From contig NZ_CP027194.1 of the NCBI RefSeq assembly GCF_002970935.1, positions 620,001-684,000 on the forward strand: a stretch of DNA of 64,000 nucleotides. Reading direction: 5' to 3'. The position numbers and the translations under genes are program-made. The DNA comes from Lactobacillus sp. CBA3606. GTDB lineage: Bacteria > Bacillota > Bacilli > Lactobacillales > Lactobacillaceae. This document shows positions 1-5,882 of the stretch, one piece after another (position 1 is the first letter of the stretch; the number at the start of each line of letters is the position of its first letter). The notes beneath the pieces were generated by a model, which saw only the letters and a program-made list of their open reading frames with translations, was not told where the DNA came from and made no database searches.

Positions 1-150
1 CAAAATCGTTGACTTACCGGCACCGCTTTTACCAAAAATAGTTGTCAATTCATGGGAATTAATTGACAAGTCCAAGTCGTCGAAGAGCACCCGCTCTCGA
101 TAATGCTTATTAACGTGCATCATTTCAACTGCGATTGGTTTATTTGTCAT
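1..150 (-). CDS. ABC transporter ATP-binding protein (N-terminal fragment, cut by window edge)
   Basis: Only the first 50 codons are inside the window. They run from the ATG at 148-150 to the left edge, with no stop. The product begins MTNKPIAVEMMHVNKHY and reaches a Walker A motif (GKSGAGKST) at about residues 41-49, so it is the nucleotide-binding subunit of an ABC transporter. Its start overlaps the 3' end of the upstream permease gene by 11 bp, which implies translational coupling and one transporter. The substrate cannot be read from this fragment. By context with a bacteriocin-associated-type permease, a MacB/LolD-like export or immunity ATPase is likely. Seen: Walker A and the overlap. 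Inferred: partner and class. Confidence 0.9.
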   Translation of the reverse strand, partial: MTNKPIAVEMMHVNKHYRERVLFDDLDLSINSHELTTIFGKSGAGKSTIL

Positions 151-2236
151 TTAAAAGCTCCTTCATATTCTGACGCTCTAATCTTTTAACTGTTAAACAA
201 ACGATGCCAAACTCAATAATTGTTATCAAACCGGTTAGCGCCCAATAATAGAAATTATTTTGATGCTGGCTAACTGTTAGATAACTCATTACACCTGCCT
301 GGGTCATTAGCATTACCATTAAGGGATGATATGTTTTAAACAAACTATAGCCGTTGACGCGTTTAATTGTCAGCGAATTTTTATTAACTTTGAAATAGAG
401 TAATGTGATATAGCCAGTTAGAAAGAACGTAACAATCGCACTAATCGTCACTGCCACGCTGTTGTGAAGCAGGTTACCAACAGCCATCTTTAAGTCTTCC
501 ATCGGTAAATCATTCAACTTAACCAGCTGTGGATAGTTATCCAAATAATTATTTTTAACCAAAATCGGCCTAAGAGACATATAGGTTTTACGTACATTAC
601 CTTTAACCGGTACTTTTAAACCATCCCTAGCACCTTGACCGTTCATCACAGAACGATAGGCACTGCCAGTATTATTTTGTGTGCTAATTAACATCGGCCA
701 TGCTTTGATTGTTTTGCCATTGGTTAAATCAACCAATGCTTGGTTAGCAGGATAATAAACGACCTTTACAACGGGCCGATATCCGAAATCATAAACAAAA
801 TTTGTTTTGATACTGGCAACCATTTTTGTTGTCAATGGCTTAGCTGTAGTTGGCATCAACATCCAAATTGAAGACGTGTTTTCGGCGATGGTAATTCGCT
901 GACCTGACGTGTCATAAAGTGGATATTGGCGCAAATAATTAGGATTAACTGATAGATACTGATAGCGCTTAAGGATTGCTTGATAAATGCTGTCATCATT
1001 AAAAAATAGGCCACCTCGTTTATTAATAGCAGTGTACATTGTCGTATCCAATTGATTTAATTCTGCCCAGGTGATATTACCCGCAACAAAATCATTGCCA
1101 GTGACATGGGGATAAAAGACTGCATACTGGTTTCCTACTATTGAAGCCTCCGTATGCCCTTTAAGAACATTATAGGAACCAGTAGCAACTTGTAATAATG
1201 GAATTAGACCTAAAAACATGTACACAATAAAAAATGCTTTGACCACATATAGCCCTAAAAAGGTCCAACGATTATAATTTCGGCGTCGCACTTGATTCGT
1301 TAGAGATAAAGACGTCATCCCCCAGATAGTTAACCAGGAAATAATCAGTATCGGTACTAATCCAAGTAATAACGTACCCATTTCTATAATTGAAATTTTC
1401 CAACCAATTAACATCGTTATCACGAATTCAACACCCAATATGGCAATCGTAACCATAATTATTTTGCTAAAAAAACTAGTAAAAATCTTAAAAACAGTAA
1501 ATCCATTTAAGCGATAAGCCGCAATTATTTGACTACTATCAAGTAGTAAAATAACGATAAAGATGCCTAGGAAACACAATATTGTAACTTGATACCCCGC
1601 TAAATCAGTTGCTTCAAGTACTAGCAGTACAGCTTTATCCTGTTTGCTTGGCCTGAACTCTTTACTAGTGGTTTGCTCGTGAGTTTCTTGATTTAAATAG
1701 TAGGCGCTCAGCTTTAAGAAGCGATGATACGTCTTTGAATCTGAGCTTTCTAAGTAATAGTCTCCTTCACGTTGATCTTGTCGAACACTCTGCTCGATTG
1801 GTTCCATGGTCAGTTTGAAACCTAGGCGTGGCTTTTTTAGCAGGTAACGACGGCTTGTAACCCTTGCATGCGGTTGGTTGCCATTAGACAAAATCGTCGT
1901 TGGCTTGACCCCTGCAATCTGAAAAGTGACTCGTGTTAGCGACTGGCTATAATTAACTTGCTGGTTTTTGATCGCCCATCCGTATTTAATTTGTCTTTTG
2001 AAATAATTTGTATGCGTTTTTTTAGCCGCATGATTCAATGCCGCAATCAATTGACCATAATTTTTTTGAGAAGTTGGAACTTTCGGTACCGTAAATAATT
2101 GATAACGTTGTGAAGAAACCCTCGTTGCCCGCTGTGCCTGCCGAATATCAGTTTTAGATTGACTTTGGGTTAATCCAATAAACCCATAAAGAATCAACAA
2201 AATTGAGAGGATGGCGACTAGTATTTTCCGATTCAT
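140..2236 (-). CDS. Large FtsX-like ABC permease, bacteriocin-associated integral membrane type
   Basis: The product is a membrane protein of 698 residues. It has one N-terminal membrane segment (about residues 4-24), a roughly 190-residue extracytoplasmic part, a cluster of hydrophobic segments in the middle (about 215-350), a second soluble part, and three hydrophobic segments near the C-terminus. This is the layout of FtsX/MacB-like permeases and of the 'bacteriocin-associated integral membrane protein' family (DUF1430-like) in lactic acid bacteria. I chose the ATG at 2236 because GGATGTAAGGGGTGCC lies just upstream; a start 12 codons earlier has no ribosome site. The gene overlaps the ATPase gene behind it. 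Its leader carries a near-perfect cre/LacI-type palindrome. The family call comes from architecture, not alignment, and the substrate is unknown. Confidence 0.7.
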   Translation of the reverse strand: MNRKILVAILSILLILYGFIGLTQSQSKTDIRQAQRATRVSSQRYQLFTVPKVPTSQKNYGQLIAALNHAAKKTHTNYFKRQIKYGWAIKNQQVNYSQSLTRVTFQIAGVKPTTILSNGNQPHARVTSRRYLLKKPRLGFKLTMEPIEQSVRQDQREGDYYLESSDSKTYHRFLKLSAYYLNQETHEQTTSKEFRPSKQDKAVLLVLEATDLAGYQVTILCFLGIFIVILLLDSSQIIAAYRLNGFTVFKIFTSFFSKIIMVTIAILGVEFVITMLIGWKISIIEMGTLLLGLVPILIISWLTIWGMTSLSLTNQVRRRNYNRWTFLGLYVVKAFFIVYMFLGLIPLLQVATGSYNVLKGHTEASIVGNQYAVFYPHVTGNDFVAGNITWAELNQLDTTMYTAINKRGGLFFNDDSIYQAILKRYQYLSVNPNYLRQYPLYDTSGQRITIAENTSSIWMLMPTTAKPLTTKMVASIKTNFVYDFGYRPVVKVVYYPANQALVDLTNGKTIKAWPMLISTQNNTGSAYRSVMNGQGARDGLKVPVKGNVRKTYMSLRPILVKNNYLDNYPQLVKLNDLPMEDLKMAVGNLLHNSVAVTISAIVTFFLTGYITLLYFKVNKNSLTIKRVNGYSLFKTYHPLMVMLMTQAGVMSYLTVSQHQNNFYYWALTGLITIIEFGIVCLTVKRLERQNMKELLNDK

Positions 2237-2257
2237 ATTGGCACCCCTTACATCCAA

Positions 2258-2271
2258 AGAAAACGTTTTCA
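2258..2271 (-). promoter_or_regulatory. cre-like / LacI-family operator in front of the ABC permease
   Basis: The minus strand reads TGAAAACGTTTTCT. This contains the 12-bp perfect palindrome GAAAACGTTTTC and matches 13 of 14 positions of the CcpA cre consensus TGWAANCGNTNWCA. It lies about 22 bp upstream of the permease start codon, where a bound CcpA or LacI-family repressor would block transcription. Which regulator binds is inferred. Confidence 0.55.
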
Positions 2272-2285
2272 TTCAATGATGCACT
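2270..2285. repeat. Direct repeat copy 1 (16 bp)
   Basis: CATTCAATGATGCACT recurs as CATTCCATGATGCACT at 2341-2356, with one mismatch and 71 bp from start to start. Both copies are in the leader of the ABC permease gene. Copy 1 abuts the cre-like palindrome. The spacing is close to seven helical turns, so a regulator-binding pair is possible; it could also be a chance or old duplication. Confidence 0.6.
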
Positions 2286-2340
2286 ACTAAATATAAAAAA
2301 TCAATAACTCATAGATCAGAAAACACTTCAACGACCAGTT

Positions 2341-2356
2341 CATTCCATGATGCACT
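2341..2356. repeat. Direct repeat copy 2 (16 bp)
   Basis: Second copy (CATTCCATGATGCACT) of the repeat at 2270-2285, same orientation, 15 of 16 bases identical. Confidence 0.6.
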
Positions 2357-2611
2357 GAAATTTAATATAAATCCGGCTTAAAAATAAAGACTCAAATATG
2401 GCTATTGGGTACGTTTTACACCCTAGATTAATGTAAAAGCATGTTTTTTTGAGAGATTATTTAGATTAAGATTTGACTAAACTAGTGGTTCAGCGCAGTG
2501 GATGAAACCTTAGCAAAGATACCTATACGATACCGACCGAGTAATGTTTGGCAATGATAAAAGTAGTGTCTGCTGATTATCTATCGAAGGCTGGAAATTT
2601 TGAATAAATAT
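2357..2611. other. Gene-free stretch between ABC permease and tRNA-Ser
   Basis: No open frame with a ribosome site is visible on either strand. The stretch is AT-rich. It holds a 7-bp inverted repeat (TTTTACA at 2414-2420 against TGTAAAA at 2432-2438) followed by a T-run, too weak to call a terminator. The promoter of the permease operon (minus) should lie in the left part of this gap, but I cannot place it with confidence. Confidence 0.5.
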
Positions 2612-2639
2612 TTGTTCTGAACCAAAATTATGCTATACT
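2612..2639 (+). promoter_or_regulatory. Promoter of tRNA-Ser
   Basis: TTGTTC (2612-2617), a 16-bp spacer and TATACT (2634-2639) form a sigma-A-type promoter. Transcription would start a few bases before the tRNA at 2655. Confidence 0.65.
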
Positions 2640-2654
2640 ATTTAGGTACCTTTT

Positions 2655-2741
2655 GGAGAGTTGGCAGAGTGGTAATGCACCGGACTCGAAATCCGGCGAA
2701 CCGGCTAATACCGGCGCGCAGGTTCAAATCCTGTACTCTCC
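2655..2741 (+). tRNA. tRNA-Ser (anticodon CGA)
   Basis: The 87-base sequence folds as a class II tRNA. The acceptor stem pairs GGAGAGT (2655-2661) with ACTCTCC (2735-2741). The anticodon loop is CTCGAAA with CGA at 2687-2689. There is a long variable arm (CCGGC...CCGG) and a T-arm with GGTTCAAATC. The long variable arm together with CGA identifies tRNA-Ser decoding UCG. CCA is not encoded. The accessory segment begins immediately downstream, and tRNA 3' ends are common integration targets. Confidence 0.95.
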
Positions 2742-2775
2742 TTATTAGAACAGTAGAGACCAGATTAAAAAAACA

Positions 2776-2816: not shown

Positions 2817-2993
2817 AGAAAGGGCTAAAAAAGAAAAACATTTTGCGCATATTTTGCGCGTAGCATCGATTGATACGTATAGGGTTAGTCTTTGTTTGAA
2901 TTTAGCGTTTTGCGCAATCGGCTGAGTACAGGCTTTGATAACGTTGATATACCAACGTTTTGAAGGTGCGCGTGCAAAATTATTCAAACGAAA

Positions 2994-3031
2994 AATCCCC
3001 GTACCAGTCAATTAAGACCAGTATGGGGATT
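2994..3031 (-). terminator. Terminator of the membrane-Nudix gene
   Basis: An imperfect stem with G-U pairs joins AATCCCCGTACCAGTC (2994-3009) and GACCAGTATGGGGATT (3016-3031). On the minus strand a TTTTT run follows. It lies 5 bp past the stop codon of the gene at 3037. Confidence 0.8.
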
Positions 3032-3036
3032 AGTGT

Positions 3037-4227
3037 TTATTTTATGTTTCGGCTAAGCGTAATCGCACTTAATGTAAAACCATCGATGATTGTTCTTTTC
3101 TTGACTTCATTTGTAAGACTAGCTTCATTCATTAACCTGTACTCTACTATCTTCTCTGAGGACTGTAATTTAATTTCTTTCAATTCAGAGAGTTCTACTC
3201 GTACAACATGAATTGAACTTTTGATCAAACCAGAATCGGGTTCTACTTCTCCTAAATCAATCGTCTTTATTACAGTCGATAAATTTACATTTAGTTCTTC
3301 TTTCAACTCACGTTTGGCTGCTGCTGAATAGTTAACCACACTACCGTCTATTTCATCTGGCTCAACAAACCCTCTCGGAAACTCCCAATTAAACCGCCCG
3401 TCAGACCTTTTAATCTTAATCATTAAATACTGATTTCCAATAGTTGTAACAGTAATTACACCAGCTGTATTTTGTTTCAATGATAAAACCCCATGATTAA
3501 TATTGATATCATAATAACTGAAGTTTTTCCTACCATTACTGTAATAATCAAAGTCTAGTATCCAAGTTTTATAACTTTTTGCGCTTTCAACACTTTCATT
3601 TAAAAGTTTATACATATGACGAAAATAAACAATGAACACCAGAGAAAACGCCACTATTAGAATGGTAAATAATGCTGCCTGTTTACTTCCCCAATTAACT
3701 AGTTTGTAGATACTATGCTCAATCATAATCAGCGGAACCATTGAAAATATCCAAACCCCATAGAACATACTATCCTCAGTAGAATTAATAGTGTGTTTGA
3801 ACCATTTTATGATTGACCGCTTCTTACTCTTATTTTCCTTTCCATTTGCCCTATTATTTACCAGCATTTCCTGAATTGTATTTTTCAAATCATCAACTGT
3901 CACATACTGGTTTTGATGAGCCATGGCATAGTTAATCACATATATTGCATCCAGATACTGTGTATGCCACCCTCTTAAACTAGCAATTGAAATACATACT
4001 ATCGCACCAATAGCACAAAGTGCCAAGTCTAATATCATCATCATGACTGGCCCACCAAAATTCGCTTGAATCGTGTGATTTGCGGTTATTATGAAACTGA
4101 TTAATACTGCGTAAAAGGTAACCACCTGATCACGTTTATGTTCTTGTTCACGCAGATGCTCGTTCGTCTGATCATATATTTGCCTTAAGTAGTCTAGAAA
4201 TACTCTTTTATCTTCATTCATATTCAT
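3037..4227 (-). CDS. Membrane-anchored Nudix hydrolase-like protein (4 TM + Nudix)
   Basis: The 396-residue product has a charged N-terminus (about 1-35), two adjacent membrane segments (about 37-58 and 60-82), a cytosolic loop rich in Lys, two more membrane segments (about 153-175 and 184-203) and a cytosolic C-terminal Nudix domain (about 245-396). The Nudix box is readable: GFVEPDE, a longer than usual linker of 13 residues, then RELKEELNV, which keeps the metal-binding REXXEE core; the usual Gly after it is Asn. Nudix enzymes cleave nucleoside diphosphates linked to another group, so a membrane-tethered nucleotide hydrolase or sensor is likely; the substrate is unknown. The gene stands alone between a tRNA and an IS remnant and is visibly more AT-rich than its neighbours, suggesting transfer. 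Start: ATG 4227 with AAAGG upstream. Confidence 0.75.
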   Translation of the reverse strand: MNMNEDKRVFLDYLRQIYDQTNEHLREQEHKRDQVVTFYAVLISFIITANHTIQANFGGPVMMMILDLALCAIGAIVCISIASLRGWHTQYLDAIYVINYAMAHQNQYVTVDDLKNTIQEMLVNNRANGKENKSKKRSIIKWFKHTINSTEDSMFYGVWIFSMVPLIMIEHSIYKLVNWGSKQAALFTILIVAFSLVFIVYFRHMYKLLNESVESAKSYKTWILDFDYYSNGRKNFSYYDININHGVLSLKQNTAGVITVTTIGNQYLMIKIKRSDGRFNWEFPRGFVEPDEIDGSVVNYSAAAKRELKEELNVNLSTVIKTIDLGEVEPDSGLIKSSIHVVRVELSELKEIKLQSSEKIVEYRLMNEASLTNEVKKRTIIDGFTLSAITLSRNIK

Positions 4228-4330
4228 TAGATAACAACCTTTCGTTAAAGTAATTATACAATAGTCACTAAATCAAAAAAATCCCCACACCAGCCATTAT
4301 GAAGTGGACCCCATAAATTGGAGTGAATTT

Positions 4331-5158
4331 CTAAGCTGCTAATTGGCTGGTATGTTCCCGGTATTTTACCGGGGACATACCGGCTAATTTTGTTTTAATA
4401 CGGCGATGATTGTAATAGTCTACGTAGCTTGTAATGGCAAATTCTAGTTCTTTATAGGTTTCGTATTGATAATTGTGAACCGTGCCAACTTTAAGAATGT
4501 GAAAGATACTTTCAGCTACCGCATTATCTAGGCATGTGGTCTTACGGCTCATGCTTTGGAAAACACGAGCTTGTCGCAAAATATTTACGTACCGACAGTT
4601 CTGATACTGAAATCCCTGATCCGAATGAATTGTCATGCGGTATGGTAAGTCTGGACGCCTTGACACTAATCGTTCAAGGGGGCGTGTGACGAAGTCTACC
4701 GTTGGTCTACGACCAATGGCCCATTCAAGAATTTCTCCGTTATAAAGGTCAATATAAGCAGTAAAATATGCACGTTCATTGATAGTTTGATTCCCTCAAC
4801 GAACCTCAGTCACATCGGTAACGATTTTTTGAAATGGTCGGTCCGTTTTGAAACGACGGTTTAAAAGGTTATGGGCAACTGTACCAACGGTTCCTTTGTA
4901 AGAATTATATTTCTTAGTTCGGCGATTGAATGCCTGACAAAGGAGATTGTTTTCACGCATAATGCGAAGTACGGCCTTGTGGTTAACGTTGATACCCTTG
5001 TTTTTAGGCGCTAAGGTCACGGTTCGGTAACCATAATCGGGATTTTCCAAGCGAATGCTTTTAATCTCATCAACTAACATTAATGAGCCTGATTGATATT
5101 CACGGTGAAGTGCATCGTGGTAACTACTACTCGACATCTGTACTGCTTTTAAAACCAC
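4331..5158 (-). pseudogene. IS3-family transposase OrfB, interrupted by an in-frame stop
   Basis: Two pieces in the same frame make up one OrfB. The upstream piece (5158 to 4799) has the helix-turn-helix-like start of IS150-group OrfB and the first catalytic Asp (VTDVTEVR). The downstream piece (to 4331) carries the second Asp (IHSDQGFQYQ) and the Glu (NAVAESIFHILK) of the DDE site. They are separated only by a TGA at 4796-4798, where the family normally has Trp (TEV-x-W-G), so a single G-to-A change explains the break. OrfB has no start of its own: its frame opens upstream (AQLITELRR), overlapping the end of OrfA, as expected for translation by -1 frameshift. The copy is presumed inactive. 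Confidence 0.85.
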
Positions 5159-5196
5159 AACTAATTTAACATTGAATTTACGCCTTAGCTCAGTGA

Positions 5197-5679
5197 TTAG
5201 CTGGGCTTTTTCTTAGTTTGAGATTTTTTCTGTGCCAAGGCTTCGAGTTTTTCCAAGTATGCTACCCATATTCGTAAAAGCTCGTTTTCTTCTTGAAGTT
5301 GCTTTAAAGTTTTGGGTTGTTTAGATTTATCTGTCATTTTTAAAGACCGTCCTTTAGATGGCTTAAGACGTCCCTCAATCAGTTTGCATTCCCAGTCCCA
5401 AACCATCATCGGTTGCTTTAGTCTGAAATGAGTTGCCGTTACTGGATATGAGGCATGGTATTCTTGTCGCCATTTGATAACTTTAATTTTAAACGAATAG
5501 TCATAAAATGTCTTCCTACAACAATGCTCTAATCCTTGAATTCCAAAAATTTTAAATTGAGTGAGCCACTGATAAATCGTTGCACTGCCTTTAATGCCAT
5601 ATTTTTTCATAAGTAACAGGGACGAAGTTCCTTGGAGATATTCCCTTAATACTTGTTGCTTTATTTTAGCTGAAAACAT
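5197..5679 (-). CDS. IS3-family transposase OrfA
   Basis: The 160-residue product has a helix-turn-helix region near its N-terminus (KIKQQVLREYLQG...SATIYQWL), a second basic segment, and a C-terminal coiled stretch rich in Lys, Gln and Glu (LKQLQEENELLRIW) as in OrfA proteins of the IS150 group. It binds the element's ends and is normally fused to OrfB by frameshifting; the end of the frame contains the A-rich slippery sequence AAGAAAAAGC (about 5204-5213). The frame is open, but without functional OrfB the element should not move by itself. A protein provided from an intact copy elsewhere could act on its ends. Confidence 0.8.
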   Translation of the reverse strand: MFSAKIKQQVLREYLQGTSSLLLMKKYGIKGSATIYQWLTQFKIFGIQGLEHCCRKTFYDYSFKIKVIKWRQEYHASYPVTATHFRLKQPMMVWDWECKLIEGRLKPSKGRSLKMTDKSKQPKTLKQLQEENELLRIWVAYLEKLEALAQKKSQTKKKPS

Positions 5680-5882
5680 AGTAAAACCCCCGGAGTTTGG
5701 ATTTCCTCCAACTCAGGGGGTTCACTTTAAAGCCCAATTCGTAAATGAATTGAACCCCAATTTTCCTCATCAACACCGGTTGACAAAGAACCAGTATTCC
5801 TTTGCTTTTCTTAGTCGTTAAGTAGTTGTACTCGCTATGGATTTTTTATTCAGCTATAGATTGCACTTCAATTGTAAATTCG

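What the first reader, a model, noticed from the sequence alone, without database searches (positions are those of the whole stretch)
3037..4227. Four-TM membrane protein with a cytosolic Nudix domain, alone beside a tRNA
The sequence shows two membrane hairpins separated by a Lys-rich cytosolic loop, then a Nudix domain whose box has a 13-residue linker in place of 7 and Asn where Gly is usual. Nudix enzymes are mostly soluble; a membrane-tethered one suggests local hydrolysis of a nucleotide signal or a nucleotide-sensing effector. Its place on an AT-rich accessory segment right after a tRNA fits a horizontally acquired, possibly defence- or stress-linked gene. The defence idea is inference.
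Basis: partly seen in the sequence, partly recalled or inferred. Interest (0 to 1): 0.6.

Follow-up and report, generated by a model that had tools for sequence, protein, structure and literature searches.

The report
Prophage-linked membrane protein with Nudix domain
A rare bacterial gene, carried as a self-contained cassette near virus insertion sites, joins membrane helices to an ADP-ribose-type Nudix domain, so it is a plausible but untested nucleotide-controlled membrane effector.

Summary
Window 3037-4227(-) is a real 396-aa gene under purifying selection: two predicted membrane hairpins, then a Nudix domain (PF00293, E=1.2e-9) with the box acidic residues intact, a 13-residue linker and Asn for Gly. 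The Asn is a family trait (Gln in one of six). The linker occurs only in the Lactiplantibacillus copies; three distant relatives have the normal 7.

Relatives with both parts are few: 6 of 397 Lactobacillaceae genomes (one with the halves split) plus one in a neighbouring family. They have no fixed neighbour. Two lie directly after a phage endolysin. The gene sits in a conserved promoter-ORF-terminator cassette. The adjacent tRNA-Ser is an attachment site: empty here, filled in a sister genome by a 46-kb phage-like element.

Among solved structures the Nudix domain fits ADP-ribose-pyrophosphatase types best. Membrane-Nudix effectors are known (CBASS Cap16), but this is not Cap16: no linked CD-NTase, no Sa_NUDIX match, no sequence similarity. 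No TIR partner was found.

Best reading: prophage cargo encoding an ADP-ribose-type nucleotide-responsive membrane effector, probably excluding other phages. Defence is inferred, not shown. AlphaFold models failed (pLDDT about 40).

The parts
3037..4227 (-). TM-Nudix gene, 396 aa
3991..4125 (-). first membrane hairpin (residues 35-79); weak PycTM / CBASS 2TM profile similarity over residues 11-84
3622..3765 (-). second membrane hairpin (residues 155-202; third helix weakly predicted)
3112..3474 (-). Nudix domain (residues 252-372), best fit to ADP-ribose-pyrophosphatase types
3286..3372 (-). Nudix box (residues 286-314): G-x5-E-x13-RELKEELNV
   Evidence: sequence
2992..4290 (-). cassette shared with L013 (85% DNA) and L014 (75% DNA): promoter-like -10, gene, terminator
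   Evidence: blastn
4253..4258 (-). conserved TATAAT (-10-like); weak -35, not listed by the promoter scan
2990..3032 (-). 3' terminator-like hairpin of the cassette, -21.8 kcal/mol, z -5.9, then T run; not listed by the terminator scan
2655..2742 (+). tRNA-Ser(cga)
2732..2744 (+). 13-bp attachment core TGTACTCTCCTTA; empty here, filled by a 46.2-kb integrase-bearing element in G211
4301..5800 (-). IS3-type insertion element (HTH_28, HTH_21, rve_2 ORFs), reading frames interrupted; ends inferred from loss of alignment to G211

Best explanation
It is a prophage-cargo gene, left at a tRNA-Ser attachment site, that encodes a membrane effector controlled by an ADP-ribose-type nucleotide. Shown: membrane-plus-Nudix architecture (helices predicted), intact Nudix metal-binding residues, purifying selection, a promoter-gene-terminator cassette kept in three different contexts, position directly after an endolysin in two relatives, and solved relatives of ADP-ribose-pyrophosphatase type. 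Inferred: the cytosolic Nudix domain binds an NAD- or ADP-ribose-derived nucleotide that rises during infection by another phage; binding clusters or opens the membrane part and de-energises the cell; slow hydrolysis by the same domain resets the signal. The outcome would be exclusion of competing phages by the resident prophage or by the cell that kept its cargo.
For: Architecture and box. Selection: dN/dS 0.095 and 0.137 against the two nearest copies, with residues 1-135 (0.059, 0.087) more constrained than the Nudix part (0.135, 0.215). Nudix profile against the PDB: the top three hits, E 1.0e-7 to 1.4e-7, cover positions 21-156 of 159; one is labelled methanol dehydrogenase activator, two ADP-ribose pyrophosphatase; other ADPR pyrophosphatases follow (1mk1, 19-149) and NUDT5 (17-107). 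Prophage cargo: endolysin directly upstream in L013 and L014 (phrog_1110 E=2.3e-59; phrog_291 E=8.7e-12), excisionase then tRNA-Arg downstream in L014. Conserved cassette. tRNA-Ser site empty in the window, filled in G211. Membrane effectors with nucleotide-binding domains are known: Cap16 TM-NUDIX (PMC10419184, passages) and ThsA TM-macro, which binds ADPR (PMC11204291, passages).
Against: No signal-making partner is linked. SMODS CD-NTase has no match in 6 of 7 carrier genomes; the seventh, the window's own, has one that is unlinked and paired with its own 4TM effector. TIR_2: no match over cut-off in 7 genomes, one sub-threshold hit in the own genome (E=0.0076). ThsB_TIR: 0 of 7. The membrane part shows no profile similarity to SLATT-like, S-4TM or Cap16 proteins. 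PycTM/2TM similarity is weak and absent in L006, L022 and L005. G269, G277 and G551 are not in prophages as far as I looked. No full-length relative was found in phage, viral-contig or plasmid collections; the membrane part alone found two Enterococcus phages only at E=2. In the PDB list some non-ADPR Nudix classes also match beyond the box: Dcp2 31-141, Ap4A hydrolase 19-116, DDP1 21-113. Against L022 the membrane part is more diverged than the Nudix part. No activity is shown.
Confidence: 0.4

Rival explanations
1. Counter-defence: the membrane-anchored Nudix hydrolase destroys NAD/ADP-ribose-type immune nucleotides so that the carrying phage or prophage survives host immunity; the helices only anchor it.
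For: Prophage-end position in two relatives; intact catalytic box; phage Nudix proteins are proposed to counter ADPr signals (PMC9503650, passages).
Against: A mere anchor should be freer to drift (inference), yet in the two nearest comparisons residues 1-135 are more conserved than the Nudix part; three relatives are not in prophages as far as I looked.
Confidence: 0.22
2. Envelope metabolism: a membrane-bound pyrophosphatase acting on NDP-sugars or similar precursors, spread by phages as lysogenic conversion that alters the cell surface.
For: One relative lies inside an exopolysaccharide-type cluster (G269; read by eye); NUDT5-type ADP-sugar pyrophosphatases are among the matches.
Against: Other relatives have unrelated neighbours; the gene is sporadic even within the genus (4 of 21).
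Confidence: 0.18
3. Simple superinfection exclusion: the membrane part blocks DNA entry and the Nudix domain is a structural or regulatory add-on.
For: Cassette next to endolysin; in G269 the two halves are separate ORFs, TAG TGA then a TTG start.
Against: Nudix metal-binding residues are invariant in the six aligned members.
Confidence: 0.12
4. A CBASS Cap16 that lost its operon, or that works with the cell's unlinked CD-NTase.
For: TM-NUDIX architecture; the own genome has a CD-NTase.
Against: No PF18167 match at E up to 1; no BLASTP similarity to L057 or profile similarity to L057 plus L058; four predicted TM segments against two; six of seven carriers have no SMODS match.
Confidence: 0.05

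Closest known systems
Cap16, CBASS TM-NUDIX effector
   Same: Membrane helices fused to a Nudix domain; membrane-damaging effector (PMC10419184, passages)
   Different: The two Sa_NUDIX proteins examined (L057, L058) have two TM segments, PF18167 and an upstream CD-NTase (read by eye); ours has four predicted segments, PF00293, no PF18167 match and no linked CD-NTase
ThsA TM-macro effector of Thoeris
   Same: Membrane helices plus an ADP-ribose-binding-type domain (PMC11204291, abstract and passages)
   Different: Nudix instead of macro; no TIR partner found
ADP-ribose pyrophosphatases (8wv3, 9jax, 1mk1, NUDT5)
   Same: Nudix profile match well beyond the box, best E about 1e-7
   Different: Those are soluble enzymes (recalled); ours is membrane-anchored, with Asn in place of the box Gly
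PycTM / CBASS 2TM effectors
   Same: Weak profile similarity of residues 11-84 (E 1.2e-4 and 3.4e-4)
   Different: Absent in L005, L006 and L022; reversed controls reach 0.007, so not established
Phage morons (promoter-ORF-terminator cargo; concept recalled)
   Same: Self-contained cassette after endolysin
   Different: No phage record carries it
TRPM2 channel with NUDT9-H domain (recalled)
   Same: Membrane part with cytosolic ADP-ribose-type Nudix domain
   Different: Eukaryotic channel; no sequence relation tested

Membership tests
Nudix hydrolase superfamily | PF00293 match over cut-off | tested here: met
   38.7 bits against 21.1; matched at E up to 1 by 6 of 6 members of A3
Nudix hydrolase superfamily | REUXEE metal-binding residues | tested here: met
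   R306, E307, L308, E310, E311 invariant in six members
Nudix hydrolase superfamily | catalytic activity | not testable with these tools
   needs assay
ADP-ribose pyrophosphatase subfamily | similarity across the whole domain, closer than to other Nudix classes | tested here: inconclusive
   second and third best PDB hits, positions 21-156 of 159, E about 1.4e-7; best hit bears another name; Dcp2 and Ap4A hydrolase also match beyond the box at worse E (60 of 119 hits shown)
ADP-ribose pyrophosphatase subfamily | substrate specificity | not testable with these tools
   needs assay
CBASS Cap16 | Sa_NUDIX PF18167 | tested here: not met
   not among families matched at E up to 1 by the six members
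CBASS Cap16 | adjacent CD-NTase | tested here: not met
   no SMODS match in 6 of 7 carriers; the seventh is unlinked
CBASS Cap16 | TM helices plus Nudix architecture | tested here: met
   but four predicted segments rather than two
SLATT | 2TM SLATT profile similarity | tested here: not met
   hhalign against SMODS-linked 2TM proteins that I labelled SLATT-like by eye: probability at most 0.3% (shallow alignments)
PycTM / CBASS 2TM | profile similarity of the TM module | tested here: inconclusive
   E 3.5e-5 to 0.015 in 3 of 5 members; reversed controls 0.007-0.012 and the second hairpin 0.023, on other models
Thoeris | TIR (ThsB) partner | tested here: not met
   PF08937 0 of 7; PF13676 none over cut-off in 7, one sub-threshold hit
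phage moron cargo | own promoter and terminator, among phage genes | tested here: met
   conserved -10 and hairpins; endolysin upstream in L013 and L014; the consensus scan listed neither signal

The most novel reading that the evidence does not exclude
A single-gene, prophage-carried membrane effector gated by an ADP-ribose-type ligand through its own Nudix domain, a bacterial analogue of TRPM2 that senses, acts and resets in one protein, distinct from Cap16 and TM-macro ThsA and needing no dedicated synthase.
Probability: 0.15. Interest if true: 0.75.

Novelty: new variant of a known kind. Interest (0 to 1): 0.42.

Why it matters
The nucleotide-gated membrane effectors I know of (recalled: CBASS, Thoeris, type III CRISPR) work with a dedicated synthase. 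An orphan membrane-Nudix protein carried as prophage cargo would suggest that such effectors can respond to general infection-linked nucleotides such as ADP-ribose or NAD breakdown products. It would also give lactobacilli a testable phage-exclusion gene.

Tried and rejected
SLATT, S-4TM and Cap16 homology of the membrane part: hhalign probabilities at most 1.9%, no better than reversed controls (up to 2.7%). Cap16 membership: rejected. Of four Sa_NUDIX matches in 3 of 250 genomes I examined L057 and L058 only. Thoeris: no ThsB. 8xMP PF24838: sub-threshold (E 0.05 whole protein, 0.008-0.07 for the first hairpin); the same model gave sub-cut-off hits in 26 of 108 genomes, so uninformative. PDC-S07 (PADLOC candidate) matches only the Nudix domain. 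AlphaFold on 3 rows: pLDDT 40.5 and 40.6, so no fold search was run. Viral contigs: four scans, no relative. Plasmid hits in Streptomyces, Embleya and Pseudomonas cover only the Nudix part; two lie beside CHAT genes, not pursued. G445 TM hit: no coherent remnant seen in three frames, dropped as chance. Of the 11 of 397 family matches, G130, G257 and G314 match only within the Nudix part and G283 from residue 185 with two stops; these four were dropped; G273 is a 55-residue C-terminal remnant. Script 58 looked for a Nudix box in ORFs beside SMODS loci and printed nothing; its pattern would miss Sa_NUDIX, so I draw nothing from it. Papers: the listings of searches showed none that I recognised as describing this protein or a comparable ADPRase-type membrane fusion outside CBASS; most subscription papers are not held.

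Full report
What is there. The ORF at 3037-4227(-) encodes 396 residues. PF00293 NUDIX matches residues 252-372 at E=1.2e-9. Hydropathy gives four membrane segments, 35-53, 61-79, 155-173 and 184-202, the third weak; at the same cut-off L014 and L006 show four, L013 and L022 three and the L005 membrane half two. The loop between hairpins (82-152) has 10 K/R to 7 D/E, which fits a cytosolic side; topology was not tested further. The Nudix box is G286-x5-E292-x13-RELKEELNV. The metal-binding REUXEE is invariant in six aligned members. The Gly position is Asn in five of them and Gln in G277, so that oddity is a family trait. The 13-residue linker occurs only in the Lactiplantibacillus copies; G269, G277 and G551 have 7.

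It is a functional gene by selection. Nei-Gojobori dN/dS is 0.095 against G211 and 0.137 against L013. In those two comparisons residues 1-135 (0.059, 0.087) are more constrained than the Nudix part (0.135, 0.215). Against distant members synonymous sites are near saturation, and against L022 residues 1-135 are the more diverged.

Distribution. In 397 genomes of the family 11 matched. Six have both parts: G000 (own), G211 (99%), G071 = L013 (Lactiplantibacillus modestisalitolerans), G258 = L014 (an uncultured Lactobacillus MAG), G269 (halves split) and G277. G273 keeps a 55-residue C-terminal piece on a contig that begins with eight tRNA genes. The other four match essentially the Nudix end. 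A TM-profile search of 395 genomes of the order gave 4 matches: own, G071, a new full-length relative in G551 (364 aa; another family of the order) and G445, which I dropped as chance. In 398 genomes of the phylum only the own genome matched. Within the genus 4 of 21 carry it. No full-length relative was found in phage records, viral contigs or plasmids; the viral scans rest on short peptide patterns and can miss distant ones. In G269 the two halves are separate ORFs: TAG TGA, with GTGAGG just upstream of a TTG start for the Nudix part. This may be a natural split or a broken gene.

Surroundings. In L013 and L014 a phage endolysin lies directly upstream on the same strand (in L014 only its C-terminal part is on the contig). 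In L014 an excisionase and tRNA-Arg follow. Blastn shows one shared block, window 2992-4290, at 85% with L013 and 75% with L014. It starts at the right arm of a hairpin that in L013 closes the endolysin (z -8.0) and more weakly in L014 (z -2.8, 2 of 200 shuffles as good). It runs through a fully conserved TATAAT and a ribosome-binding-like site to a conserved 3' hairpin and T run (-21.8 kcal/mol, z -5.9). The consensus scan listed neither this promoter nor this terminator; my claim rests on conservation and folding.

The attachment site. In G211 the DNA matches window 1-2744 up to the tRNA-Ser end, then about 46.2 kb intervene, ending with an integrase and a second copy of the 13-bp core TGTACTCTCCTTA, after which the match resumes at window 2732. 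I read this element as a prophage from its integrase and anti-repressor; the other roughly 37 kb was fetched but not annotated. So the window is the empty site, and the gene lies just outside that element. L013 has a core with one mismatch near its contig end, on the other side of the gene. The simplest account is repeated phage integration at tRNA-Ser, with the cassette left as cargo of an earlier element. That history is inferred. Three relatives (G269 in an exopolysaccharide-type cluster, G277 beside a ROK-type sugar kinase gene, G551 between genes I read as SprT-like and DUF72) are not in visible prophages (names by eye, recalled).

What the Nudix domain resembles. The profile of six Nudix domains gives three PDB hits at E 1.0e-7 to 1.4e-7 over positions 21-156 of 159: one labelled methanol dehydrogenase activator and two ADP-ribose pyrophosphatase (119 hits, 60 shown). 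NudE and NadM follow but match little beyond the box; 1mk1 ADPR pyrophosphatase (19-149) and NUDT5 (17-107) match further. Against a clean assignment, Dcp2 (31-141), Ap4A hydrolase (19-116) and DDP1 (21-113) also extend beyond the box at weaker E. A D-[ST]-G-L-I motif follows the box in all six. This suggests, and does not prove, an ADP-ribose-type ligand.

What the membrane part resembles. Residues 11-84 match PADLOC PycTM (1.2e-4) and a CBASS 2TM effector (3.4e-4; 3.5e-5 in L013), in 3 of 5 members tested; L005 had none. Three reversed controls reached 0.007-0.012 and the window's second hairpin 0.023, on other models. The similarity is suggestive only. Profile comparison with SLATT-like, S-4TM and Cap16 proteins gave nothing above reversed controls.

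Comparison with known systems. A membrane-Nudix effector is known: Cap16 of CBASS, which stays toxic when its Nudix domain is mutated (PMC10419184, passages). Two Sa_NUDIX proteins found here (L057, L058) have two TM segments and sit directly after an ORF that I read by eye as a CD-NTase. Ours fails PF18167, linked CD-NTase and sequence similarity. ThsA TM-macro effectors bind ADP-ribose and are proposed to cluster TM helices (PMC11204291, passages), but no TIR partner was found. The own genome does have a CBASS pair, with its own 4TM effector, elsewhere.

Verdict. The architecture and mobility are real. The gene is best read as prophage cargo encoding an ADP-ribose-type Nudix membrane effector (0.40), with counter-defence, envelope metabolism and simple exclusion as live rivals. 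It may work like Cap16 or TM-macro ThsA, but is not a member of either family by the tests made here. New variant of a known kind.

Noticed in passing
G000:C1 1774000-1785000 (L056:5084-6955): CBASS pair, CD-NTase plus 4TM effector, with a serine-recombinase-like gene just upstream and several transposase-like ORFs around (by eye); a closely similar pair beside a similar recombinase is in G019, another genus (L047, L053), suggesting transposon carriage.
   Followed up: partly
L015:4727-7563 (G211 element): Between repressor region and integrase: a DNA cytosine methyltransferase-like gene, a DUF262-like gene and a third gene, a possible defence cargo module (read by eye).
   Followed up: no
window 140-2272(-): 710-aa relative of bacteriocin-associated integral membrane proteins (TIGR01654, 135 bits, below its 189-bit cut-off).
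   Followed up: no
L093:937-4447 and L096:1-3555: Actinobacterial plasmid Nudix proteins of similar sequence lie directly beside CHAT-domain genes, in 2 of the 4 plasmid records whose surroundings I viewed (L092, L093, L095, L096).
   Followed up: partly
L005:1465-2637: In G269 the membrane and Nudix halves are separate ORFs within an exopolysaccharide-type gene cluster.
   Followed up: partly
L018:2369-2533: 55-residue C-terminal remnant of the same family on a G273 contig that starts with a cluster of eight tRNA genes.
   Followed up: no
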